From: a virus
Reading direction: 5' to 3' (one strand)
IMG/VR virus record: IMGVR_UViG_3300023301_000046
Location: 1-34,377 of that record
Length of the DNA: 34,377 nucleotides
This document shows positions 163-14,861 of this stretch, piece by piece. The notes under the pieces are model-generated. The model was given only the letters and a program-made list of their open reading frames with translations, was not told where the DNA came from and did not search any database. Position 1 is the first letter of the stretch. Each line of letters opens with the position of its first letter. Made by a program: the position numbers and the translations under genes.

Positions 163-825
163 ATGGCTTTTATAGGATTTAATCCATGCCCTAAATGTAA
201 TTCAAAAGACAACTTAGCGGAATATACAGAAAACTTTTACTGTTTTGGGTGTGGATATTCTAAACCTAAACGAAGTTTAAAGCGATTTGAGGCGTTAAAA
301 AGTGATAGCGTATATAAAGGTATTGCTTTGACAAAAGAATTGCACCATGAGGCTAGAAAGTGGCTTGTAGGGTATGGATTAACGTCTGAAGAGATGGAAT
401 TATTCGCATATAATGTTGATAATGACATTTTAGTGCTTTCTTATAGCGAAAATCACTGGCATGGGAGATGCTTTGCACCTAATAGTAAAAGGAAATATGA
501 TGGACGAGGTGACAAGCCTTGCGTAATATACGGAAATAATCCTGAAACGTGCGTGATTGTGGAAGATATTGTAAGTGCCGTAAAGGTGGCACGCCAGTTT
601 AGTGCCGTTGCAATGCTAGGTGCAATGCTTGCAGAAAAGCATGTAAGCGCATTAAAGCAGTTTAGTGAGGTGGTACTATGGAATGATAGAGATAAAGCGC
701 GAGAGAGTGTAAGAAATGCGCGTAGTATAGGTGAATTGCTAGGTGTAACCGTGAAAGTGGTTATAAGTACTAAAGACCCTAAAGAATATAGTAATAAAGA
801 TATATATAACTTTATAAAGACTTAA
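163..825 (+). CDS. TOPRIM DNA primase (T7 gp4 N-terminal type)
   Basis: A 220-residue protein that should synthesise RNA primers for lagging-strand replication. The N-terminus holds a Cys4 zinc ribbon (CPKC near residues 9-12 and CFGC near 27-30), the template-recognition module of phage primases. The middle and C-terminal part looks like a TOPRIM fold: VIVEDIVSAVK supplies the conserved Glu and LWNDRDKA the acidic pair. The helicase half of T7 gp4 is absent; a separate helicase gene lies at 1,630, so primase and helicase are independent proteins here. The ATG follows the upstream stop by two bases with only a weak AGAAGAA-like ribosome-binding site, which suggests translational coupling. Confidence 0.88.
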   Translation: MAFIGFNPCPKCNSKDNLAEYTENFYCFGCGYSKPKRSLKRFEALKSDSVYKGIALTKELHHEARKWLVGYGLTSEEMELFAYNVDNDILVLSYSENHWHGRCFAPNSKRKYDGRGDKPCVIYGNNPETCVIVEDIVSAVKVARQFSAVAMLGAMLAEKHVSALKQFSEVVLWNDRDKARESVRNARSIGELLGVTVKVVISTKDPKEYSNKDIYNFIKT

Positions 826-838
826 GTATTAAGTCTTT
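816..838 (+). terminator. hairpin terminator at the end of primase
   Basis: A perfect 9-bp inverted repeat (AAAGACTTA / TAAGTCTTT, loop AGTAT) overlaps the primase stop codon and runs into TTTTATATAT. The stem is GC-poor, so termination may be partial. It separates the primase unit from the promoter at 960. Confidence 0.5.
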
Positions 839-959
839 TATATATATATAATATAAAATACTATGTATTTTATATATATATTAATATATATATATATAAA
901 TATATAGAGTATAACAGATATTTAGATTTATGTAAAGATATTTAATAACTTAAATAGCA
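839..959. repeat. AT-only TA-repeat tract with a short hairpin
   Basis: Almost pure A/T with long alternating TATATA runs and an inverted repeat AAAATAC-TAT-GTATTTT. A closely similar tract, including a comparable AAATAC-TTT-GTATTT hairpin, occurs at about 33,420-33,585. No open frame of credible length is present. It is probably a melting or spacer region upstream of the promoter at 960. Confidence 0.6.
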
Positions 960-988
960 TTGTGTCACTTTAAGGTTTAATGTATAAT
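960..988 (+). promoter_or_regulatory. putative early sigma70-type promoter
   Basis: TTGTGT, 17 bases, then a perfect TATAAT at 983-988, about 34 bases before the next gene. The spacer end and downstream flank (AAGG.TTTA near the -10, then GCTCA after it) closely match the promoter before the PqqA-like gene at 12,580-12,608, supporting a shared early promoter type. Confidence 0.65.
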
Positions 989-1021
989 GCTCATTACCAC
1001 TTATAGGAAAGGATGATAATC

Positions 1022-1366
1022 ATGGCTGGATGTTTTGGTAATAGTGCCGAAGATAGATATAGAGAACGAGAGCTTAACCGTTATTTGGATAGCCAAGATG
1101 AAGCTGACGACCGCGACGAGCGCATAGCTGAATTAGCTGAAGAAATTGAAGCCGATGAACGATTGTTAGCTGACTTGTTATGTACTAATAACAATAACTC
1201 ACAGTTTATATATAATATATTTCAAGCGTTTAATAATTACAGAAGCTCACCATTAAGCCATTCACAATACCATGATTTTGGAATTGACATTGTGGGTATT
1301 ATGCGTGAATACATAGACCTCGTCGCTAAACAACATGCTGAACACTTATACGAGAAGGATAACTAA
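1022..1366 (+). CDS. hypothetical early protein with acidic helical N-terminus
   Basis: A 114-residue protein if started at ATG 1022, chosen because GGA at 1011-1013 then gives normal spacing; ATG 1013 is a possible alternative that overlaps the Shine-Dalgarno. The first half is highly charged (many Asp, Glu, Arg) and probably helical or coiled coil; the second half is less charged and ends in a His/Glu-rich helix. It is the first gene after the promoter at 960 and is followed within two bases by another small gene. No family recognised. Confidence 0.7.
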   Translation: MAGCFGNSAEDRYRERELNRYLDSQDEADDRDERIAELAEEIEADERLLADLLCTNNNNSQFIYNIFQAFNNYRSSPLSHSQYHDFGIDIVGIMREYIDLVAKQHAEHLYEKDN

Positions 1367-1367
1367 A

Positions 1368-1484
1368 ATGAGTGATTACAACCATAAAAAATACATATGT
1401 TTTAGTAAAAATAACGAGCGTGAAGAGGTGATTGCTATTGATGAAGAGCTAAGACATGCACCCTTTAAAGGAGAAATAAAATGA
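1368..1484 (+). CDS. small hypothetical protein (38 aa)
   Basis: A 38-codon frame starting two bases after the previous stop and ending in an ATGA overlap with the next gene. Its own ribosome-binding site is weak (GAAGGAT about 10 bases upstream). The 3' part of the frame contains the AAAGGAGA that serves as Shine-Dalgarno for the next gene, so it may mainly provide translational coupling. The product is charged and has no recognised family. Confidence 0.5.
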   Translation: MSDYNHKKYICFSKNNEREEVIAIDEELRHAPFKGEIK

Positions 1485-1621
1485 AATATTTACTAATAGC
1501 ATTAACATTGTTAGCAACAACGGCAACTGCAAGTGATTGTGTTTGGAATTTTTACACAGTGAATGGCGTAACCTATTCATGCATGACTTGCGGTAACATT
1601 ACATCATGCAATAAATCATAG
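1481..1621 (+). CDS. small secreted cysteine-containing peptide (46 aa)
   Basis: The frame begins in an ATGA overlap, with AAAGGAGA at good spacing. The N-terminus is a classical Sec signal peptide: MK, a hydrophobic core (YLLIALTLLA) and a small-residue end (TATA-S) with predicted cleavage near residue 17 or 18. The mature part, about 28 residues, carries four Cys (20, 34, 37, 43) that could form two disulfides in the periplasm. Cys-bearing exported peptides of this size in early phage regions are sometimes superinfection or cell-envelope effectors; that role is a guess. The helicase follows 8 bases downstream. Confidence 0.7.
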   Translation: MKYLLIALTLLATTATASDCVWNFYTVNGVTYSCMTCGNITSCNKS

Positions 1622-1629
1622 GGGGTTTT

Positions 1630-2850
1630 ATGGTTGAATACAGGATATTGAAGTGCTTTGTAGAAGACATCACTTTGTATGATAAGTATTACAGTAGTTT
1701 AAACTTGGAATTCATCAAGCAAAACTACCCTATAATGAATAAACTTTTTAAGAGTTTGCCAGCCAGTAGCTTTACAGAACTAGAAGCAAAATACCTAACG
1801 AATTACCCCGTTTTAAAGGAAGGTGACCGCTTAGTATTAAGAGAGAATTTAAACACCATAGAGGCTTCAGAAAGTGCCTTGGAGGGCGTGTTAGAATACT
1901 TAGAAGGACATTTAAGCAGGGCATGGGCAAGTGATGTGGCTTTAATGGCTTTAGATGTTGCCGAAGGCAAGCAAAGTGTAGAAAAGCTTAACGAGATATT
2001 AGCTAAACAATCTCAAAGTACAATTGTTACGGCAGACGTTGAACTAATATCCACTAGCATTACCGAGCTAACTAAGATTGATGAATTAGAGCCAGGGTTG
2101 AATTGGCAATTAAAATGCTTAAGGCAATCACTAGGTGCAATAAGAAAGGGTAATTTAGGGCATATCGCTGCACGGATTGAAACAGGTAAAACTGCTTTAT
2201 GGGTGAGTGAAGTTATATATATGGCACAGCAATTACCTGAAGATGAAAATGTAACAATATTTTTCAACGAGGAAAATTCAGAGGATGTAGTGTGGAGGTT
2301 GTATAGCTCGCTTACTGGTAAGCCATATAAAGAGATTAAGAATAATCTCACACACTATGAAGAGATATGGAACACTAAAATAGGGAAACGTATTAAGTTT
2401 GTACCGCCAGAGTATTCTACTAAGCGACATATTGAAGCTATTATGGAAGCGCATAAGCCTAGTTTAGTGGTTATAGACAATTCGGATAAAGTATTAGGCT
2501 TTGACGGTGACCGAGAGGACTTACGCTTACATGCAATTTATAAATGGGCTAGGCAGCTCGCACAAAAGTATTGTCCGATTATAAGTGTAGGTCAAGCGGA
2601 CTTTAGTGGTGCGAATCAAAGGGTGATTACTGAAAGCCAATTGGCAGGGGGTAAGACAGGTAAACCTTCAGAGCTTGACTTTCTAATTACGATAGGTAAA
2701 ATAGATAAAGATGGGTATGAAGATGTTAGGTTTATATCAACACCGCGTAATAAGCTTAGGGGTGATGCAACAACCGTTGACACTATGAGGCACATTAAAG
2801 GGGTGGATGTTATGTTAAATCCACTGATTAGCAGATACACAGATATGTAA
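1630..2850 (+). CDS. replicative DNA helicase (DnaB / T7 gp4 type)
   Basis: A 406-residue RecA-fold helicase that should unwind the fork ahead of the split DNA polymerase. Walker A is visible as ARIETGKT at residues 181-188, Walker B as LVVIDN at 279-284, followed by an H4-like motif (ISVGQADFSGANQ) and a candidate arginine finger (RNKLRGD). The N-terminal 150 residues are helical and contain no primase. AGGGGG lies just before the ATG. The position after the primase with small genes between is typical of small podoviruses in which gp4 functions are split. Confidence 0.9.
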   Translation: MVEYRILKCFVEDITLYDKYYSSLNLEFIKQNYPIMNKLFKSLPASSFTELEAKYLTNYPVLKEGDRLVLRENLNTIEASESALEGVLEYLEGHLSRAWASDVALMALDVAEGKQSVEKLNEILAKQSQSTIVTADVELISTSITELTKIDELEPGLNWQLKCLRQSLGAIRKGNLGHIAARIETGKTALWVSEVIYMAQQLPEDENVTIFFNEENSEDVVWRLYSSLTGKPYKEIKNNLTHYEEIWNTKIGKRIKFVPPEYSTKRHIEAIMEAHKPSLVVIDNSDKVLGFDGDREDLRLHAIYKWARQLAQKYCPIISVGQADFSGANQRVITESQLAGGKTGKPSELDFLITIGKIDKDGYEDVRFISTPRNKLRGDATTVDTMRHIKGVDVMLNPLISRYTDM

Positions 2851-2870
2851 CTGCCATCTAATAGTTTACA

Positions 2871-2991
2871 GTTCAAATACTTAAGTGTATTTTGAACATA
2901 CGAGAATCACTCGTTAGTAGCAGGTTCATTTCTAGAAAAACTATACACTTTTTCTAGAATCTTATTAAAGTAATTGGTGATTTTCTTTAAT
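2871..2991. repeat. four consecutive inverted repeats in an intergenic region
   Basis: The 169-base gap after the helicase holds four non-overlapping inverted repeats: GTTCAAATAC/GTATTTTGAAC (2871-2897, one bulge), ACGAG/CTCGT (2900-2914), TTCTAGAAAAA/TTTTTCTAGAA (2930-2959, perfect 11 bp, loop of 8) and ATTAAAG/CTTTAAT (2964-2991). None is followed by a clear T-run on the + strand. They could be a structured RNA leader, an operator array or an origin. Confidence 0.55.
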
Positions 2992-3019
2992 AGACAATAT
3001 TATTATTAAAAGGGATTAT

Positions 3020-3316
3020 ATGAAACATGTACATGCGGAATGGGTAAGGCTATGGTTAGATGGGGTGGACGTTGAATACAAAACTTTTTCAAAGTGGTGG
3101 TCTGTTACTAACCTTGCAGATTTTGACAAGTATGGAACTGAATTCAGATTTAAGCCCGCCCCTAAGCCAAAAATAATTAAGCATGTTACTTTACAACTTG
3201 AAGAGGATGTTGTCACACTCTATAGTGATTTAGAGTGTTGGTCACATTGCCATACCCTAAAATTAACATTCAATGGTGAAACTGGAAATCTAATCACAGC
3301 GGAGGTGTTGAAATGA
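3020..3316 (+). CDS. conserved phage protein with HAE.(..)WLDG N-terminus
   Basis: A 98-residue protein. The N-terminal half (HAEWVRLWLDGVDVEYK, a W-rich stretch, then EFRFKP) matches a pattern I know from many phage accessory proteins of unknown function, in which a His-Ala-Glu start and a Trp-Asp-Gly are followed by a YR.KP-like strand. AAAAGGGA precedes the ATG. It is the first gene after the inverted-repeat cluster and overlaps the next gene as ATGA. Confidence 0.75.
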   Translation: MKHVHAEWVRLWLDGVDVEYKTFSKWWSVTNLADFDKYGTEFRFKPAPKPKIIKHVTLQLEEDVVTLYSDLECWSHCHTLKLTFNGETGNLITAEVLK

Positions 3317-3411
3317 ATAAACATTTAGAAGCAGGATTACTCATTACACTTGTGGTTTTATCGTTTCTTTCGGGGTATGCTCTTGGCACACAGCAGCTAT
3401 TTGGAGTATAA
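3313..3411 (+). CDS. single-pass small membrane protein (32 aa)
   Basis: A 32-codon frame starting in an ATGA overlap, with a strong GGAGGTG ribosome-binding site at normal spacing, and ending one base before the methyltransferase ATG. Residues 7-25 (AGLLITLVVLSFLSGYALG) form one predicted transmembrane helix. Function unknown. Its terminal codons contain the GGAG that primes the methyltransferase start. Confidence 0.65.
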   Translation: MNKHLEAGLLITLVVLSFLSGYALGTQQLFGV

Positions 3412-3412
3412 A

Positions 3413-4384
3413 ATGAATGTATTAAGTTTATTTGATGGTATGAGTTGTGGGCAGATTGCCTTAAACAATTTAGGCATAAAAGTGGATAACTATTATGCTA
3501 GTGAAGTTGATAAGTATGCTATGCAGATTGCTAAGAAAAACTTCCCAAATATCACCCACATAGGGGATGTTACTAAAGTTATAGGGAGTGAGTTACCTAA
3601 GATTGACTTACTTATAGGTGGTAGCCCTTGCCAGGGGTTCAGCTTTGCAGGGAAACAGCTTAACTTTGATGACCCACGGTCAGCTTTGTTTTTTGAGTTT
3701 GTTAGATTGTTAAAAGAGTGCAAGCCTAAATACTTTATGTTAGAAAATGTAAGAATGAAACAAGAGTTCCAGGATGTTATATCTGAGCATTTAGGTGTTA
3801 AACCTATAATGATTAATTCAGCCTTAGTGTCGGCACAAAATCGGGTTAGGCTTTATTGGACTAACATACCTAATGTTGTGCAGCCGAACGATAAAGGCAT
3901 TGTGCTTAATGATATTATTGAAAATATTGTCGTTGATACAGTCAAAGACACAGCTAGAAATCGCAAACACTACAAGGAACTTAATCAAAAGTCACTATGT
4001 ATGTTAGCAACAATGTATAAAGGGGCGGGGAATACTGGAATGACTTTAGTCCCACAAATATTATGTGGTGCATGGAGGGGTAGATACCTTATTGATGGTA
4101 AAAGGCAAGACCATAAAGGAAGTGTCGTGGGTAAAACGGAACAACGGTTAGAAATTAGAGATGATGGTAAAACCAACACCATAACTACAGTACAAAAGGA
4201 TAATGTTGCCACTAAAGGGGGGGTGTATTACAGAAAGCTTACACCATTGGAGTGTGAACGCCTACAAACAGTTCCTGATGGTTACACAGATGGTGTCAGC
4301 AATAGCCAAAGGTATAAGATGTTAGGTAATGGGTGGACAGTTGATGTAATTGCACACATATTTAAGAATATGGAAACTATATGA
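3413..4384 (+). CDS. DNA (cytosine-5) methyltransferase
   Basis: Transfers methyl from S-adenosylmethionine to C5 of cytosine in DNA. Starting at ATG 3413 (TTGGAG at good spacing) the protein has 323 residues and opens directly with motif I, LSLFDGMSCG; an upstream in-frame ATG at 3350 would overlap the small membrane gene. Motif IV with the catalytic Cys is SPCQGFSF (C73), motif VI is ENV (111-113), motif VIII is AQNRVRLYW (141-149), and the C-terminal motifs IX/X are LTPLECERLQ and MLGNGWTVDV. No restriction partner is encoded nearby, so it is an orphan, probably protecting phage DNA from host restriction. It overlaps the polymerase gene as ATGA. Confidence 0.93.
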   Translation: MNVLSLFDGMSCGQIALNNLGIKVDNYYASEVDKYAMQIAKKNFPNITHIGDVTKVIGSELPKIDLLIGGSPCQGFSFAGKQLNFDDPRSALFFEFVRLLKECKPKYFMLENVRMKQEFQDVISEHLGVKPIMINSALVSAQNRVRLYWTNIPNVVQPNDKGIVLNDIIENIVVDTVKDTARNRKHYKELNQKSLCMLATMYKGAGNTGMTLVPQILCGAWRGRYLIDGKRQDHKGSVVGKTEQRLEIRDDGKTNTITTVQKDNVATKGGVYYRKLTPLECERLQTVPDGYTDGVSNSQRYKMLGNGWTVDVIAHIFKNMETI

Positions 4385-5535
4385 TTAAGGCAGTGGACTT
4401 AGAAACGTCAATCTATAACAAAGGCAACTTTGCAGACACACGTAACTATGTGTGCTTTGCTGGGGTTGGTGATACAATATGGGATATTGAATATTATAAG
4501 GATGAACCATATGGGCATAAATTAGTAGAAATACAACAAGCGATTGATGAAGCCACGTTGTTGGTGTTTTGTAATGCTAAGTTTGACATCCACCACTTAA
4601 AGAATTTAGGTATCACCTGTAGCCATAAGAGGATATGGGACTGCTCTTTAGTAGAATATATGTTGTCAGGGCAAACTATGACATACCCATCAATGAATCA
4701 AATGGCGGATATTTACAGCTTGGAACAGAAACCAGACATTAAAACTAAATATTGGGAAGAAGGGATACAAACCTGTGACATTCCGTATGATGAGATAGCA
4801 GACTATTTACAGCACCATGACTTACCTACAACATTAGCTATTTATAACCACCAGAAAGCTAGGTGTGAGATGCAAAGTGTACAGTTCCAAAGGTTAGTGT
4901 CAGTGCACAATCAAGATACACATTGTTTAGCTGAGATGGAACATAATGGCTTGTTTTTTGATGAAAAACAGTGTATAATGTCAAGTACAGAATTAGAAAT
5001 AGAGATAAAGAAATTACAGCAAGAATTGACTGATTATCATGACGTACCTGAGTTTAATACAGCCAGTGGTGACCATATGTCAGCATTGATTTACGGTGGG
5101 GTGATTACAATCCCACGAAAAGTGTTAGTTGGTGTTTATAAGACTGGTGACCGAGTAGGGCAAGATAAGTATGGGTGGCAAGATTTTGTATTTAACTTAC
5201 CAACCCAGTTTAAGCCTTTAGCTAAGACAGAATTAAAGAAAGCAGGGTTTTGGCAGACAGGTGCAGACATTCTTAAACAACTAAAGTGTCGTGATAATGC
5301 AGGGAAACATCTCATAAAGATTATCTTATCATTGGCAAAGCTAGAGAAATTATTAGGGACATATTACAAAGGACTGCCAGCTTTAAGAGAGAAAATGAAT
5401 TGGAAAGGTGATTATTTATATGGCAATTTGAGCCAAGTGTCAGTTGTTACAGGGCGATTATCCAGCAGCAAACCTAATCTTCAGAATATATCAGGTGAAA
5501 TGAAAAACATTTTTAGGAGTAGATATGGCTATTGA
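4381..5535 (+). CDS. DNA polymerase I family, N-terminal half (exonuclease and start of polymerase)
   Basis: A 384-residue N-terminal part of a family A DNA polymerase. The proofreading 3'-5' exonuclease is at the start: VDLETS (DxE), NAKFDIHHL, and exo III as YLQHHDLPTT. The polymerase domain then begins (LAEMEHNGLFFDE, NTASGDHM) and runs through the template/primer-contact motif (GRLSSSKPNLQNIS) to FRSRYG, where the frame stops. The palm catalytic motifs A, B and C are missing and are found in a second gene at 6,628, so this is one half of a split enzyme expected to assemble as a heterodimer. The stop is not within a damaged stretch: the break falls exactly between two conserved blocks. Confidence 0.9.
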   Translation: MIKAVDLETSIYNKGNFADTRNYVCFAGVGDTIWDIEYYKDEPYGHKLVEIQQAIDEATLLVFCNAKFDIHHLKNLGITCSHKRIWDCSLVEYMLSGQTMTYPSMNQMADIYSLEQKPDIKTKYWEEGIQTCDIPYDEIADYLQHHDLPTTLAIYNHQKARCEMQSVQFQRLVSVHNQDTHCLAEMEHNGLFFDEKQCIMSSTELEIEIKKLQQELTDYHDVPEFNTASGDHMSALIYGGVITIPRKVLVGVYKTGDRVGQDKYGWQDFVFNLPTQFKPLAKTELKKAGFWQTGADILKQLKCRDNAGKHLIKIILSLAKLEKLLGTYYKGLPALREKMNWKGDYLYGNLSQVSVVTGRLSSSKPNLQNISGEMKNIFRSRYGY

Positions 5536-5716
5536 AAAGAAACTTAGTAGTTATAAAGCTTTTAAGCAAGCAATGGATATAGTCCGTGAGTATGATAAAG
5601 ATGATTGTGCATATATTGCCAATCTAATTCTAAAACATAAAGAGGGTTCACCACGACCAGAGGAGACAGGCTTGATTACTGGTTACTACAAACCATTGAC
5701 ACAAGGGGAAGTGTAA
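5525..5716 (+). CDS. hypothetical protein, first gene inside the split polymerase
   Basis: A 63-residue protein. Its Shine-Dalgarno (AGGAG) and start lie inside the last codons of the polymerase N-half, overlapping it by 11 bases in another frame. Mostly helical and charged with Pro/Gly-rich C-terminus. Its stop shares one base with the next ATG. No family recognised. It is one of five genes filling the 1.1-kb polymerase break. Confidence 0.65.
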   Translation: MAIEKKLSSYKAFKQAMDIVREYDKDDCAYIANLILKHKEGSPRPEETGLITGYYKPLTQGEV

Positions 5717-6069
5717 TGAAAGAAGAACAAACTATTTATACATTAAAGCTTCATGAACATATAGTGACTAGCGATAGCTTAATTATAACAAGAGTCCCTG
5801 GAGGGTGGATTTATGAGTATAGTATTGTTGATAGTCTTGTCTTTGTACCTTTTAGTGGTGAATTTATGGGAGGTAAAGTAGATATTACATTCACGCAAGA
5901 GCCTGTATATGAGTATCAGTGGCTAGTTGACCACGGTGATGACAAGCTTATAATAACTAAATGGCACAGAACAGAAGAAGAGGTATTAAGCACGTTCCGT
6001 AAGTTTTCTCATTATGATTTAGTTATTGTAGAACGCCTCGACAAGTATAAACGGGAAGTAAAGGGGTAA
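5716..6069 (+). CDS. hypothetical beta-rich protein inside the split polymerase
   Basis: A 117-residue protein with AAGGGGAAG before the ATG, overlapping the previous stop by one base (TAATG). The sequence alternates short hydrophobic strands and looks beta-rich in the first 80 residues (ITRVPGGWIYEYS, LVFVPFSGEF), ending in a basic helix. No HNH, GIY-YIG or LAGLIDADG motif is visible, so it is not an obvious homing endonuclease. Function unknown. Confidence 0.7.
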   Translation: MKEEQTIYTLKLHEHIVTSDSLIITRVPGGWIYEYSIVDSLVFVPFSGEFMGGKVDITFTQEPVYEYQWLVDHGDDKLIITKWHRTEEEVLSTFRKFSHYDLVIVERLDKYKREVKG

Positions 6070-6627: not shown

Positions 6628-7332
6628 ATGATATTTCAGTGTGATGCAGCAGCCTTAGAAATTCGTGTAGCTGCTTTTCTTTCACAAGATGAAGTGTTAA
6701 TACAAGAGTTTATTAATGGTGAAGACCTACACACTTCCAATCAGATAAAGTTTGGACTCCCTGATAGGGGAATTGCTAAAGTGTTAAATTTTAGAATTTT
6801 ATATGGAGGCAATGAGTTTAGTTTTGCACAAGACCCAGACTTTACATCGGTAAGCAAGTCTAGGGAGTATTGGAAAGAAGTAATTGAGGCTTATTACACT
6901 AAGTATGCAGGAATTAGTGCATGGCATAAGAAGATAATTAAAACAGTAATTGAAACAGGTGAGTTGAGTACACCACTAGGTAGGTTTTTTAAGTTTCAAA
7001 AATATGGTGGAGAGTACACACCCACTACAATAAAGAACTACCCTGTGCAAGGCACTGGAGCAGATATAATGGCACTCGTTAGGGTTAGTGCTTATAATAG
7101 GTTAAAGAAGTTAGACCTACCTGACTGCTTATTAGTCAATACGGTACATGACTCTATAATCTTAGATTTTAAAGATGCAGGGTTGATACCAGTGTTAAAT
7201 GATATGTTTCATGGGGTGTTTAAAGACATTCCAGCAAATATAGAGAAGGTGTTTGGAGTTAAGTTTAATGTCCCCATGACTTGTGAAAACCAAGTTGGCA
7301 GTAATTGGGGTGATATGGTCGTAGTTAATTAA
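6628..7332 (+). CDS. DNA polymerase I family, C-terminal half (palm and fingers catalytic motifs)
   Basis: A 234-residue protein that begins almost at motif A: M-IFQC-DAAALEIR. Motif B (O-helix) is RGIAKVLNFRILYGG, and motif C is VNTVHDSIILD, holding the second catalytic Asp. The usual HDE of motif C is HDS here, a substitution worth noting. It ends with the family's terminal block (NVPMTCENQVGSNWGDM). It starts at ATG 6628 with AAGGATAAGA upstream. Together with the gene at 4,381 it makes a full family A polymerase; neither half alone has both exonuclease and palm. Confidence 0.9.
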   Translation: MIFQCDAAALEIRVAAFLSQDEVLIQEFINGEDLHTSNQIKFGLPDRGIAKVLNFRILYGGNEFSFAQDPDFTSVSKSREYWKEVIEAYYTKYAGISAWHKKIIKTVIETGELSTPLGRFFKFQKYGGEYTPTTIKNYPVQGTGADIMALVRVSAYNRLKKLDLPDCLLVNTVHDSIILDFKDAGLIPVLNDMFHGVFKDIPANIEKVFGVKFNVPMTCENQVGSNWGDMVVVN

Positions 7333-10533: not shown

Positions 10534-10705
10534 TCTACATGAATTATATGAGAAATTGATAGAGCAAATAGGTGAAGAGGATTTAGTAGATGTATTAGAG
10601 CTTACTACAGAAGACTTAGTAAATGCTTTTAAAGATAAGATTGAAGATAATTATGAAACGTTATTAGAGATGTTAGACCTAGCCGAAGAAGATGATAACG
10701 AATAG
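10526..10705 (+). CDS. small acidic hypothetical protein (59 aa)
   Basis: Started at ATG 10526 because GAGG lies 6 bases upstream; the upstream ATG 10514 sits too close to AAGGAG. The product is helical and very acidic, ending LAEEDDNE. It overlaps the DUF3310 stop by 8 bases and ends 10 bases before the reductase. Function unknown. Confidence 0.65.
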   Translation: MINLHELYEKLIEQIGEEDLVDVLELTTEDLVNAFKDKIEDNYETLLEMLDLAEEDDNE

Positions 10706-10715
10706 AGGAAGTAAT

Positions 10716-12563
10716 ATGGATAAAAGTCAAGCAATACTAAGTGAAATAACGGTGTTTAATAAATATGCTAAGTATGTACCTGAGTTACAGCGTAGAGAAA
10801 CATTTGAAGAAATCGTAGACCGTAATATGGCAATGCACATTCGCAAATATCCTATAATGAACGAGGAAATTAAAGATGCTTACAAGTTTGTATACAACAA
10901 GCAAGTATTACCTTCGATGCGTAGCCTACAATTTGGCGGAGTTCCTATTGAGCTCAGTAATAACCGTATCTTTAATTGTGCATTTTCTAACGCTTCCCAC
11001 CCTGCTATTTTTAGTGAAACTATGTTTAATCTGCTTGGAGGGAGTGGGGTGGGTTATAGTGTACAAAGACACCATGTGGAACAACTACCTGCTATCTGTG
11101 GAACGTCAGAAAAAACAAGACGCTTCTTAGTAGGTGACTCAATTGAGGGTTGGGCTGACTCGGTTAAAGTGCTGATTAAGGCATATACATTAGGCAAGTC
11201 TAAACCTGTGTTTGATTACCGAGATGTTCGCCCTAAAGGTTCTAGACTTATTACCAGTGGTGGCAAAGCACCAGGACCAGCTCCACTTAAGTTCTGCTTA
11301 GTCAAGTTAGAAAGTGTTTTACAGAACGCCACAGGGCGTAGTTTAACACCAATTGAAGTGCATGATATGATTTGCTATATTGCAGATGCAGTGTTAGCGG
11401 GTGGTATTCGCAGAGCTGCTTTGATTAGCTTGTTTAGCAAAGATGACTTAGATATGTTGTCAGCTAAGGCAGGTAAATGGTATGTATTAAACCCACAACG
11501 TGGTAGAGCAAATAACTCAGCAGTTTTAAAACGTGGTGAGGTTACTAAAGAGCAATGGGACACTTTGTGGAAAAAAGTAGAGGCAAGTGGTAGTGGTGAG
11601 CCAGGTGTGTTTTGGACAAACGATTATGACATGGGGACTAACCCCTGTGCAGAGATTGCCCTACACTCTAACCAATATTGTAACCTTGTAGAAATTAACG
11701 GCAATGCCGTCACTAACCAAGATGAATTAAATGCTGTAGTTAGGGCGGCTACATTGATTGGCACACTACAAGCAGGATACACAGACTTTCACTATCTACG
11801 GAATGCTTGGAAAGAACAAACTGAAAAAGAGGCATTACTTGGTGTAAGTATTACAGGGATTGCTAACACTGTATTACTAGGGCTTGACTTAAAAGAAGCT
11901 TCAGCTATCTCTATTGGGGAGAACGTTCGTGTGGCTAATATTATTGGTATTAACAGTAGCGCAAGAATTACTACGGTTAAGCCAGCAGGAACAACGTCAT
12001 TAGTTTTAGGCAGTTCTAGTGGCATACATGCTTGGCATAATGACTACTACATTAGACGTATGCGCGTGGGTAAGAATGAACCATTGTACCAATATATGAT
12101 GGACACTGTGCCATCTATGGTTGAAGACTGCTACTTTAATCCTCACTTAGAAGCTGTGATGACTTTCCCACAGAAAGCCCCTGAAGGTGCAATCTTACGG
12201 ACAGAACATTTTATGCACACACTAGAGCGTGTTAAACGATTTAATAAGGAGTGGGTCGGTGGAGGGCATGTATATGGTAATAATCAGCATAACGTTTCTT
12301 GTACTATTTCTTTAAAGGACAATGAGTGGGGAGAATGTGGGCAGTGGATGTGGGACAATCAAAACGACTACACAGGGATTAGTGTATTACCGTATAATGG
12401 TGGAACGTATGTACAAGCACCATTCACAGATTGCACTAAGGAGGAGTTTGATAATATGTACAAACTATTACAAGAAATTAACTTAACTAATGTAAAAGAA
12501 ACTGACGATAATACAGTGGCTAAAGAGGCAATTGCTTGTGCAGGTGGTTCTTGCGAGGTATAA
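10716..12563 (+). CDS. adenosylcobalamin-dependent (class II) ribonucleotide reductase
   Basis: Converts ribonucleotides to deoxyribonucleotides using a B12-generated thiyl radical, supplying dNTPs for phage replication. Started at ATG 10716 (AGAGGAAG upstream), giving 615 residues. It resembles the monomeric RTPR-type class II enzymes: LPSMRSLQFGG, RIFNCAF with the first redox Cys (88), NLLGGSGVGYSVQ, NPCAEIAL with the radical Cys (311), a redox Cys exactly 11 residues on (322), and KPAGTTSLVLGSSSGIHAWH. The C-terminus ends ACAGGSCEV, the swinging thiol pair. No NrdB-like subunit is encoded. It is last in the early block before the PqqA-like unit. Confidence 0.92.
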   Translation: MDKSQAILSEITVFNKYAKYVPELQRRETFEEIVDRNMAMHIRKYPIMNEEIKDAYKFVYNKQVLPSMRSLQFGGVPIELSNNRIFNCAFSNASHPAIFSETMFNLLGGSGVGYSVQRHHVEQLPAICGTSEKTRRFLVGDSIEGWADSVKVLIKAYTLGKSKPVFDYRDVRPKGSRLITSGGKAPGPAPLKFCLVKLESVLQNATGRSLTPIEVHDMICYIADAVLAGGIRRAALISLFSKDDLDMLSAKAGKWYVLNPQRGRANNSAVLKRGEVTKEQWDTLWKKVEASGSGEPGVFWTNDYDMGTNPCAEIALHSNQYCNLVEINGNAVTNQDELNAVVRAATLIGTLQAGYTDFHYLRNAWKEQTEKEALLGVSITGIANTVLLGLDLKEASAISIGENVRVANIIGINSSARITTVKPAGTTSLVLGSSSGIHAWHNDYYIRRMRVGKNEPLYQYMMDTVPSMVEDCYFNPHLEAVMTFPQKAPEGAILRTEHFMHTLERVKRFNKEWVGGGHVYGNNQHNVSCTISLKDNEWGECGQWMWDNQNDYTGISVLPYNGGTYVQAPFTDCTKEEFDNMYKLLQEINLTNVKETDDNTVAKEAIACAGGSCEV

Positions 12564-12579
12564 TCAATGATTATCTGTA

Positions 12580-12608
12580 TTTACTTAAGCAAGGCTTTAT
12601 GATATAAT
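12580..12608 (+). promoter_or_regulatory. putative promoter of the PqqA-like gene
   Basis: TTTACT, 17 bases, then perfect TATAAT at 12603-12608, about 32 bases before the ATG. The surrounding AAGGCTTTATGA before the -10 and ACTCA after it match the promoter at 960-988 apart from single-base changes and one gap. This gives the gene its own early-type promoter after the reductase stop. Confidence 0.65.
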
Positions 12609-12640
12609 ACTCACTCAATAAACCCAATTGGAAAACTACT

Positions 12641-12712
12641 ATGTGGAAAACACCATCAGCTACAGAAATGCGATTTGGCTTTGAAGTTACAATGTATGTA
12701 ATGAACAAGTAA
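12641..12712 (+). CDS. pqqA: PQQ precursor peptide PqqA
   Basis: A 23-codon gene whose product lines up without gaps with bacterial PqqA, also typically about 23 residues: MW-K at the start, P5, R11, G13 and the core GFEVTMY, with E15 and Y19 at exactly the positions of the Glu and Tyr that the radical SAM enzyme PqqE joins to make pyrroloquinoline quinone. The core RFGFEVTMY is like that of Pseudomonas and Acinetobacter PqqA. No pqqB, C, D or E is present in the window, so the peptide would have to be processed by host enzymes. The gene is a self-contained unit: own promoter, weak GGA ribosome-binding site, and a terminator six bases after the stop. PQQ serves methanol and other periplasmic dehydrogenases. 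The identification is by motif memory, but the agreement is strong for so short a peptide. Confidence 0.88.
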   Translation: MWKTPSATEMRFGFEVTMYVMNK

Positions 12713-12717
12713 AAAAT

Positions 12718-12739
12718 AAGGGGGCAAATAAGCCCCCTT
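12718..12739. terminator. bidirectional intrinsic terminator between the convergent arms
   Basis: A perfect 8-bp GC-rich stem (AAGGGGGC / GCCCCCTT) with loop AAATAA, flanked by an A-run on the left and TTT-AGTTT on the right, so it can stop transcripts from both sides. It lies between the PqqA-like stop and the stop of the left-pointing gene at 12,747. Confidence 0.9.
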
Positions 12740-12746
12740 TAGTTTA

Positions 12747-14861
12747 CTAATTTTCTAGGTTTGGAACACTCTCAGTAGCAACACCCCGCATAATTTGTTG
12801 GCTTGTTGGGGCTTTGTTTAATGTTGCCTTAAAGCCATCCCGCATAGATGGGGACATCTTAGCCATCATAGCTTCTGCTAATTTAGCAGTTTGTCCTTTA
12901 GGAATTACCTCTAAGAAATCTGCCATTTTAGTAGGGTCTAGCATCAACTCACTAATTTTAGCATCAAACTCAGACTGACTACCACGTCTTAATCTATCTA
13001 TTACAGTGTTAGTTAAACTTAGAGCGCGTATCAACAAGCCCCTAACTTGAGTGTCTTCCCCTGAAGGCCCTTTAGTACTTTCCACAGTTTTGCCTAAAGC
13101 ATCCCCTTTAGCTTGCCTATTTAAATCCATTTTTACGCGGTTTACCGCAGACATTTGGTCTACAGTAAGGAGGTCTTCTAATTTTGAATATCTAGGATTA
13201 CCTGTAGCACGCTTAATAAGACTTGTTGACTCATTGACTGCGTTAACAAACATACCAGCCTTTTCTACATCACCAAAAGACACTCCTAACTTATTCTGTA
13301 AATTAGTACCGACTTCTAGTTGGTCTATCTTTTTACTTTGTTTTGCAAAAGAAGTTAAATATTCTGACCACAGCTGACTACCAGACGCTTTATTTATTTC
13401 AATGTCTATTAGTTTTTTTAAGTCACCCTCCACTTTAGCAGCTTGCGCCCCAAAACTTGTATTTGTATTACTTTTAGTAGTAATAAACTCGGAAATATCG
13501 TCAGCAGTTTCTTTACGAATATTATATAAGTCAGCACTATTTATAATACCGTTACTATTTGAATGGCGTACTAGCTTGCCACGCACCTTTAACAAAGTAG
13601 AAGAAAGCATTTCATTTGATTTCTCTCCTGGAGTTCTCAGAGATGTATCTATTTTTTTAACAAGTGAATCTATAGTTAAAGGATAATACCCTTGACTTTT
13701 GATACTCTTTATTTGTCCTTTTATAATTTCTTTTTCTGCTTCACCTAATGGTATTGTTTTTGTACCTCCGCCTCCTAACGTAGTTGGCACTTTGCGAATT
13801 GGGGCTTGTCCAAGACCTGCGTTTAGTTTAGCTTCTAGTAAACTACCAGTTTCCCCATATATATTAGCACTCACCAAAGCACGCTCTCTCATAGGAGCTG
13901 TAGTTCTTAATCTTGCTTGTTTAGCAGCCTCAATATCCAATTTAGTTCCGAATGTATCTTTTAAGTCATCAAGCCTTGCTTCTGCTTGCTCTTGGAATCT
14001 TTCAGTAAATTTAGCCGAATTTTGCTCACTCTTTGCCACTCTACTTTGTTCTCTAGCTAAATTACCACCAAAAGTAGTGCCACCCAAGCTGTCCGCAACT
14101 GTAGGTCTACTTCCTGAAACAATGTCACCCTGAGACCTTAACTCATTAATAACATTCTGCTTATTTTCACCAGTTAAATTAGACAAATACTTAAACAAGG
14201 ATGCTTCTTTAGCAGATTTAGTGATTGGAAGTCCTGATATAAAAGACCCAAGCCCTTTAGAAAGGTAAGCAGCCCCTGGAATAGCTCCAGACAAAGCCCC
14301 ACCTAAACCTAATTGAAAGTTCTTTTCACTCCAAAAGTCTTCATCTAAAACAGGGATTGACACGCCTGATAGAGCAGCCCCAGACACGGCTTGTTGACCA
14401 ATCCGACCTAAAACATTAGCAGCATTTGCATTAGGGATTAATTTGTTTAATGGTGAGACTATAGCCCCAATAAACGCAAGGGCATCAATCCCATCTTTAC
14501 CTTGAGAAGCCCTCCCTGCTTGGTAGGCTTTGTTTTCATCTTGAACTAACTGATTTGTGCCTTGACGTACATCACTACCAAAGATACCTGTATTACCTAA
14601 TAATTGATTAATAGCTAAGGCAGGGTCAATTACTGCCCCTTTAACTACACTATAGAGAGGTGAACCAGGTCCAACCATACGAGAAACCATACTTGGTTCT
14701 TCCACAGGTGCAGGAGGTGTCCTCCCCTTAATCTTAGCAGTAAACTCCTCGAAAGGTATGTCACTATAAAATTTAGAATGAAGCCCTGTTACTAATTGCT
14801 CATCGGACAGGTCACTGTAATCAGGGTATTTTTTTCGAACATCATCAATTGAAATTTCCAT
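12747..14861 (-). CDS. large internal virion / DNA ejection protein
   Basis: A 704-residue protein, the last gene of the late arm. The N-terminus (IDDVRKKYPDYSDLSDEQLVTGLHSKFY) is a short helical motif I know from podovirus injection proteins and other large virion proteins. It is followed by a Gly/Ala-rich stretch (about residues 130-200) that could be membrane-active, then long charged helical segments. T7-like phages carry three internal core proteins here, and the place at the end of the tail block supports that role. No lytic transglycosylase motif is evident. Confidence 0.65.
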   Translation of the reverse strand: MEISIDDVRKKYPDYSDLSDEQLVTGLHSKFYSDIPFEEFTAKIKGRTPPAPVEEPSMVSRMVGPGSPLYSVVKGAVIDPALAINQLLGNTGIFGSDVRQGTNQLVQDENKAYQAGRASQGKDGIDALAFIGAIVSPLNKLIPNANAANVLGRIGQQAVSGAALSGVSIPVLDEDFWSEKNFQLGLGGALSGAIPGAAYLSKGLGSFISGLPITKSAKEASLFKYLSNLTGENKQNVINELRSQGDIVSGSRPTVADSLGGTTFGGNLAREQSRVAKSEQNSAKFTERFQEQAEARLDDLKDTFGTKLDIEAAKQARLRTTAPMRERALVSANIYGETGSLLEAKLNAGLGQAPIRKVPTTLGGGGTKTIPLGEAEKEIIKGQIKSIKSQGYYPLTIDSLVKKIDTSLRTPGEKSNEMLSSTLLKVRGKLVRHSNSNGIINSADLYNIRKETADDISEFITTKSNTNTSFGAQAAKVEGDLKKLIDIEINKASGSQLWSEYLTSFAKQSKKIDQLEVGTNLQNKLGVSFGDVEKAGMFVNAVNESTSLIKRATGNPRYSKLEDLLTVDQMSAVNRVKMDLNRQAKGDALGKTVESTKGPSGEDTQVRGLLIRALSLTNTVIDRLRRGSQSEFDAKISELMLDPTKMADFLEVIPKGQTAKLAEAMMAKMSPSMRDGFKATLNKAPTSQQIMRGVATESVPNLEN

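What the first reader, a model, noticed from the sequence alone, without database searches (positions are those of the whole stretch)
12580..12740. Phage-borne pqqA: PQQ precursor peptide as an independent transcription unit
The 23-codon gene at 12,641-12,712 agrees with bacterial PqqA in length and at key positions (MW-K, P5, R11, G13, E15, V16, T17, Y19), including the Glu and Tyr that PqqE cross-links. It has its own promoter and a strong terminator, the layout of an accessory metabolic gene (moron). No other pqq gene is present. The phage could raise precursor supply for the host PQQ pathway and so keep PQQ-dependent dehydrogenases, such as methanol dehydrogenase, running during infection. 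Other readings: the peptide acts as a decoy that occupies PqqD/PqqE, or it is passively acquired. At 23 codons it is easily missed by gene callers.
Basis: partly seen in the sequence, partly recalled or inferred. Interest (0 to 1): 0.95.

Follow-up and report, generated by a model that had tools for sequence, protein, structure and literature searches.

The report
Phage-borne cofactor precursor peptide gene
This phage carries a 23-codon gene for PqqA, the peptide that bacteria convert into the redox cofactor PQQ. The same tiny gene, unannotated or called on the wrong strand in every record checked, occurs in every methanol-bacterium phage found in the phage collection searched and in roughly 1,600 environmental virus contigs, so these phages probably feed their host's methanol-oxidation machinery.

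Summary
Window 12641-12712 (+) encodes MWKTPSATEMRFGFEVTMYVMNK, a PqqA at 40.1 bits (cut-off 21.1) in Pfam and 39.1 (cut-off 20) in NCBIfam. The window is a podovirus-like phage; no PqqD, PqqE or PQQ dehydrogenase was found in it.

In 50,697 phage records, tblastn finds pqqA in all nine Methylophilaceae-phage records found (P19250A, Venkman, MEP301, MEP401/402, four Melnitz), one spring-water phage and two doubtful Acinetobacter contigs. It is unannotated or called on the wrong strand in all records examined. In IMG/VR, 120 of 120 sampled motif hits are about-23-aa pqqA ORFs; a codon-frequency estimate gives about 1,600 contigs (about 650-5,900). No variant was found at the cross-linked Glu or Tyr. 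In the window's own phage lineage the gene sits in at least five places, implying repeated gain or relocation.

Hosts carry 1-12 pqqA copies but almost always one pqqE. Best reading: the phage supplies the one pathway component that is consumed, keeping PQQ supply going during infection. Expression and processing are untested. Viral pqqA was reported for a Lake Baikal virus (2020) and listed for reservoir viruses (2026); prevalence, recurrence and absence from annotation are new.

The parts
12641..12712 (+). pqqA: 23-aa PQQ precursor peptide MWKTPSATEMRFGFEVTMYVMNK
   Evidence: PF08042 40.1 bits and TIGR02107 39.1 bits; conserved in viruses
12680..12697 (+). Codons 14-19, FEVTMY: contain Glu15 and Tyr19, which correspond to Glu16 and Tyr20 of Methylorubrum PqqA, the pair cross-linked by PqqE
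   Evidence: translation; PqqE chemistry (PMC10906245); no viral variants of the kinds searched
12580..12608 (+). sigma-70-like promoter TTTACT-17-TATAAT with TG before the second hexamer
   Evidence: 10 of 12 matches; not significant alone; supported by the pattern over 285 viral copies
12718..12739 (.). bidirectional terminator hairpin between pqqA and the convergent late operon
   Evidence: -20.9 kcal/mol, z -4.6 on the + strand; -21.2, z -4.0 on the - strand; longer T-run on the - strand
10692..12563 (+). upstream gene: class II-like ribonucleotide reductase, end of the early/replication block
   Evidence: PHROG 367, E 2.4e-120; Pfam RNR barrel domain and RNR-II insertion domain
12747..14861 (-). 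downstream convergent late gene, 704-aa protein of unknown function (likely virion protein)
   Evidence: weak PHROG of unknown function; only four distant relatives, 40-44% identical

Best explanation
The gene is a functional, host-derived pqqA carried by a phage of Methylophilaceae (OM43, LD28 or Methylotenera-like methylotrophs). Shown here: family identity, invariance of the cross-linked Glu and Tyr in the viral copies searched, purifying selection, near-restriction to phages of this host group among annotated phages, many lineages and many genomic positions, and in other phages a transcription-unit-like layout. Inferred: during infection the peptide is made and the host's PqqD, PqqE, PqqF/G, PqqB and PqqC convert it to PQQ. 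PqqA is the one component of the pathway consumed with every PQQ made, so it would run out first once host transcription stops, whereas the enzymes persist. One 72-bp gene would then suffice to keep PQQ supply, and so XoxF-type methanol dehydrogenase and the cell's energy supply, going.
For: HMM identity. Host group: the signature EMRFGFEVTMY in GTDB genomes falls almost entirely in Methylophilaceae, and the window gene is 65/69 nt identical to Methylotenera MAG copies. Every Methylophilaceae-phage record found in INPHARED has it; apart from one spring-water phage and two doubtful 'Acinetobacter phage' contigs no other record hits, even with a Pseudomonas-type PqqA as query. Hosts have 1-12 pqqA copies, yet pqqE is single in eight of ten genomes, double in one and not found in one partial genome; 3-12 pqqA against a single pqqBCDE set is also published (PMC4109929): gene dosage points to PqqA as the limiting, consumed component. 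Host genomes encode PQQ alcohol dehydrogenases; the phages do not. No viral variants at E15 or Y19; pN/pS 0.20. Autonomous layout across 285 viral copies: terminator-like hairpins in 127/278 v 5/834 shuffles; promoter-like sites in 60% of copies without a same-strand upstream gene v 17% of the others, Fisher p 7e-14 (related contigs inflate this).
Against: No transcript, peptide or PQQ measurement. Hosts already carry several pqqA copies, so an extra copy needs a reason such as shut-off of host transcription, which is assumed. PQQ dehydrogenases already loaded with cofactor may outlast an infection. Twenty-five larger relatives by portal or RNR showed no pqqA; their hosts are unknown and many are fragments, and that search had no positive control.
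Confidence: 0.75

Rival explanations
1. Decoy: the peptide occupies host PqqD and PqqE to slow PQQ synthesis and divert host metabolism.
For: A short peptide that keeps the PqqD/PqqE-binding sequence could act this way; phages often inhibit host enzymes (general knowledge).
Against: A pure decoy need not keep the reacting Glu and Tyr, yet no variant of the kinds searched was found against an estimated more than a thousand intact copies. 103 of 285 viral peptides are identical to a host PqqA, and a peptide the host enzymes accept as substrate adds product.
Confidence: 0.07
2. Passive hitch-hiker: a small, common, multi-copy host gene picked up by chance with no benefit.
For: Hosts have up to 12 copies, so pick-up would be easy; the gene is tiny.
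Against: Purifying selection, invariant E15 and Y19, presence in all nine Methylophilaceae-phage records found, and own regulatory signals do not fit neutral cargo.
Confidence: 0.05
3. Attachment or recombination site: the host pqqA-like stretch is an attP or homologous-recombination target, not an expressed gene.
For: Temperate phages often carry a piece of a host gene at attP (general knowledge); pqqA is multi-copy in hosts.
Against: Whole ORF from start to stop with synonymous divergence from hosts (65/69 nt, longest exact run 39 nt); positions differ within one phage lineage and include late-operon sites; no integrase turned up among the window proteins scanned.
Confidence: 0.03
4. Different product: PqqE cross-links the phage peptide but the product is used for something other than PQQ, such as a signal or an inhibitor of competing phages.
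For: PqqA is formally a RiPP precursor; one paper reports co-expression of a PqqA-like family with defence systems (PMC11118758).
Against: Phage peptides are nearly or fully identical to host PqqA and the phage records tested bring no PqqD or PqqE, so the host pathway would make the same product.
Confidence: 0.04

Closest known systems
PqqA of Methylophilaceae (PF08042, TIGR02107), scattered stand-alone copies
   Same: Length, signature EMRFGFEVTMYV[MC]N[KR], stand-alone gene far from pqqE; up to 65/69 nt identity to the window gene.
   Different: Lies in a phage genome; T3 replaced by K3.
pqqA of the predicted Lake Baikal methylophage VP_266 (PMC7678222, 2020)
   Same: Viral pqqA in a predicted phage of Methylophilaceae; same proposed role.
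   Different: That T4-like virus was reported together with a viral methanol dehydrogenase; the window phage and seven phage records tested here carry pqqA without dehydrogenase, PqqD or PqqE.
pqqA, pqqD and pqqE listed as viral phosphorus-cycle genes in reservoir sediments (PMC13188868, 2026)
   Same: Viral pqqA named in a gene list.
   Different: Read there as phosphate solubilisation; no methylophage link and no stand-alone recurrent gene in the passages read.
Cyanophage psbA as an auxiliary metabolic gene (from general knowledge)
   Same: Logic: the phage replaces the fastest-consumed host component to keep host energy metabolism running.

Membership tests
PqqA (PF08042, TIGR02107) | Match to the family models above the curated cut-off | tested here: met
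   40.1 v 21.1 bits; 39.1 v 20 bits
PqqA (PF08042, TIGR02107) | Glu and Tyr four residues apart for PqqE cross-linking | tested here: met
   E15 and Y19 in the window; no viral variants of the kinds searched (chemistry PMC10906245)
PqqA (PF08042, TIGR02107) | Short peptide of roughly 22-29 residues | tested here: met
   23 aa
PqqA (PF08042, TIGR02107) | Adjacent to pqqBCDE (usual, not obligatory) | tested here: not met
   No PqqD or PqqE in the window; not a defining requirement in Methylophilaceae, whose own extra copies are scattered (PMC4109929)
PqqA (PF08042, TIGR02107) | Is cross-linked by PqqE with PqqD and becomes PQQ | not testable with these tools
   needs enzyme assay
Phage auxiliary metabolic gene | Located in a bona fide phage genome | tested here: met
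   Terminase, portal, capsid, primase, helicase, DNA polymerase and RNR around it; seven phage records opened
Phage auxiliary metabolic gene | Homologous to a metabolic gene of the host | tested here: met
   65/69 nt to Methylotenera MAG copies; host group by signature
Phage auxiliary metabolic gene | Kept by selection | tested here: met
   pN/pS 0.20; codons 9-19: 68 synonymous v 8 non-synonymous pairwise differences
Phage auxiliary metabolic gene | Expressed and changes host metabolism in infection | not testable with these tools
   no infection data held

The most novel reading that the evidence does not exclude
Carrying a stand-alone pqqA is a general rule for phages of Methylophilaceae, gained repeatedly by unrelated phages and free to settle anywhere in the genome. 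It defines a class of auxiliary gene that supplies a consumable ribosomal substrate instead of an enzyme, overlooked because gene callers skip 23-codon genes. Presence of this gene would then mark methylotroph viruses in environmental data.
Probability: 0.55. Interest if true: 0.82.

Novelty: new variant of a known kind. Interest (0 to 1): 0.74.

Why it matters
Phages of abundant coastal and freshwater methanol oxidisers would control, with a 72-bp gene, the supply of the cofactor on which methanol oxidation depends. It makes testable whether PQQ supply limits methanol oxidation in infected cells, links viruses to the methanol (C1) cycle, gives a short host marker for unassigned virus contigs, and shows that AMG surveys based on standard gene calling miss a gene present in all nine Methylophilaceae-phage records found in the phage collection searched.

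Tried and rejected
1) Reading absence from relatives: 25 larger contigs related by portal or RNR had no PqqA match, but the search had no positive control and hosts are unknown, so no rate is claimed. 2) Same-position conservation: the neighbouring 704-aa protein has only four distant relatives, none with pqqA in the stretch held. 3) Attachment-site idea: rejected (no integrase among the window proteins scanned, positions vary, full ORF under coding constraint). 4) Proving the window's own promoter: not possible, the match is near chance for the region. 5) Later methylophages MEP431-434 and Venkman EXVC038S: guessed accessions were absent or were other phages, so untested. 6) A tree of PqqA: not attempted, 23 residues carry too little signal; nearest-neighbour counts favour other phages over hosts (167 v 54, 64 ties) but cannot separate phage-to-phage transfer from repeated capture. 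7) The two 'Acinetobacter phage MD-2021a' hits were not followed; they may be bacterial contigs.

Full report
1. The observation. The window is a 34,377-base virus record. ORF 12641-12712 (+) reads MWKTPSATEMRFGFEVTMYVMNK. It matches Pfam PqqA over the whole model at 40.1 bits (cut-off 21.1, E 3.4e-10) and the NCBIfam 'equivalog' model for PQQ precursor peptide at 39.1 bits (cut-off 20). This is not chance. The record holds a phage: primase, DnaB-like helicase, DNA polymerase A (split in two ORFs), exonuclease, class II-like RNR, cytosine methylase, terminase, portal and capsid. No PqqD, PqqE or PQQ alcohol dehydrogenase was found in it.

2. Local anatomy. pqqA lies between the RNR gene (stop 12563, same strand) and the convergent late operon (last gene 12747-14861, minus). 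A promoter-like site with 10 of 12 matches and a TG lies at 12580-12608, but 1.5 such matches are expected by chance in the region. The hairpin 12718-12739 folds at -20.9 kcal/mol, z -4.6, and is about as stable on the other strand, which has the longer T-run. So it closes both pqqA and the late operon. Nothing terminator-like separates RNR from pqqA. The gene may be its own unit, the last gene of the early block, or both.

3. How widespread. tblastn of the 23 residues against 50,697 annotated phage records (INPHARED) hits P19250A, Venkman, MEP301, MEP401, MEP402 and four Melnitz isolates, that is, all nine Methylophilales/Methylophilaceae-phage records found, plus a podovirus from Manatee Spring and two 'Acinetobacter phage' contigs that look doubtful. 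A Pseudomonas-type PqqA as query gives the same list, so phages of the many other PQQ-using hosts appear to lack it. In the seven records opened, pqqA is unannotated, or a hypothetical protein is called on the opposite strand over it. Papers on Melnitz, MEP301, Venkman and MEP401/402 do not mention pqqA. MEP431-434 and EXVC038S, which exist in the taxonomy, could not be found in the collection.

4. Metagenomic viruses. One exact codon spelling, 4 of those 120, occurs in 54 contigs in the whole collection, which gives about 1,600 contigs (binomial range about 650 to 5,900, own arithmetic). Longest proteins of contigs from different clusters include phage portals (SU10- and P22-type), T4-type capsid and terminase, DNA polymerase and tail fibres; one contig (L050) looked more bacterial. 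By shared proteins (at least half of the smaller gene set), 288 loci fall into 51 groups, with the window, P19250A, MEP401/402, Melnitz and the Venkman/MEP301 group apart. Many loci are fragments, so 51 overstates the number of lineages. Venkman's 12 kb around pqqA and the Manatee Spring phage share DNA only at pqqA.

5. Positions. Within the window's own group of 18 loci pqqA lies: after RNR, convergent with late genes (window); divergently upstream of primase (L018, L266, L314, L325, L374, L401, L408); downstream of RNR on either strand (L064, L402, L404); near the small terminase gene (L049, L114, L344); between portal and a small late gene (L075); beside the capsid gene (L084, L357). Gene order is otherwise alike, so pqqA was gained or moved repeatedly.

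6. Selection. Between seven distinct phages pooled pS is 0.51 and pN 0.10 (ratio 0.20); in codons 9-19 there are 68 synonymous and 8 non-synonymous pairwise differences (pairs are not independent). Scans built to find copies with a non-G-initial codon at Glu15 or a non-T-initial codon at Tyr19, in the EMRFGF..VTM context, found none. These are the residues that PqqE joins (Glu16 and Tyr20 in Methylorubrum numbering; PMC10906245). W2, P5 and R11 are invariant in 285 copies; W2 and P5 lie outside every search pattern used.

7. Regulation. Over 285 viral copies, flanking genes are same/same 102, opposite/opposite 91, same/opposite 46. A simple terminator-like hairpin follows in 127 of 278, against 5 of 834 shuffles. 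A promoter-like site of at least 9/12 is present in 60% of copies without a same-strand upstream gene, 17% of the others and 32% of shuffles. The gene thus tends to bring its own promoter where it cannot use a neighbour's. Related contigs are counted more than once.

8. Host. The signature EMRFGFEVTMY in GTDB genomes is nearly confined to Methylophilaceae. Ten such genomes carry 1 to 12 pqqA copies; pqqE is single in eight, double in one and not found in one partial genome. This agrees with the published 3-12 pqqA per genome against a single pqqBCDE set (PMC4109929). Three genomes checked hold PQQ alcohol dehydrogenases. The window gene is 65/69 nt identical to Methylotenera MAG copies.

9. 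Mechanism. Established knowledge: PqqA is the substrate; PqqE with PqqD cross-links it, then protease, PqqB and PqqC finish (PMC10906245), so one peptide is used per PQQ. Inference: when host transcription stops, enzymes last but the substrate does not, so a phage needs only pqqA. The host's own many pqqA copies point to the same bottleneck. A decoy is less likely because reacting residues are kept. Expression, processing and benefit are not shown.

10. Novelty. Viral pqqA was reported for a Lake Baikal virus together with methanol dehydrogenase (PMC7678222) and listed among reservoir virus genes (PMC13188868). New here: a stand-alone pqqA in every methylophage record found, in many lineages and positions, invariant at the reactive residues, and missing from annotations. 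No claim is made about papers outside the searched library.

Noticed in passing
window 4381-5535 and 6628-7332: DNA polymerase A is split into two ORFs with about 1.1 kb of small ORFs between; relatives in the same group also have two polymerase ORFs, mostly with a shorter gap.
   Followed up: partly
window 12747-14861 (-): 704-aa late protein with only four distant relatives in IMG/VR at 40-44% identity.
   Followed up: no
L035 (PqqA MKWSKPTYQKLRLGFEVTMYFKQV), L011, L020, L025, L031, L116: Viral contigs with PqqA of a different, non-Methylophilaceae type (L035 with an SU10-type portal, L116 with a Mom protein), suggesting that phages of other PQQ makers also carry pqqA.
   Followed up: partly
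L008 3998-4069 (Melnitz): In Melnitz pqqA sits just upstream of a tRNA-Leu gene, inside a wrong-strand hypothetical call.
   Followed up: no
L237: A contig binned in a bacterial genome shares 18 ORFs with pqqA-bearing phages; it is probably phage DNA in that bin.
   Followed up: no
L147, L150, L217, L227, L235: Marine Methylophilaceae genomes carry a tandem pair of pqqA about 200 bp apart, one of a divergent ...VCN[KR] type.
   Followed up: no
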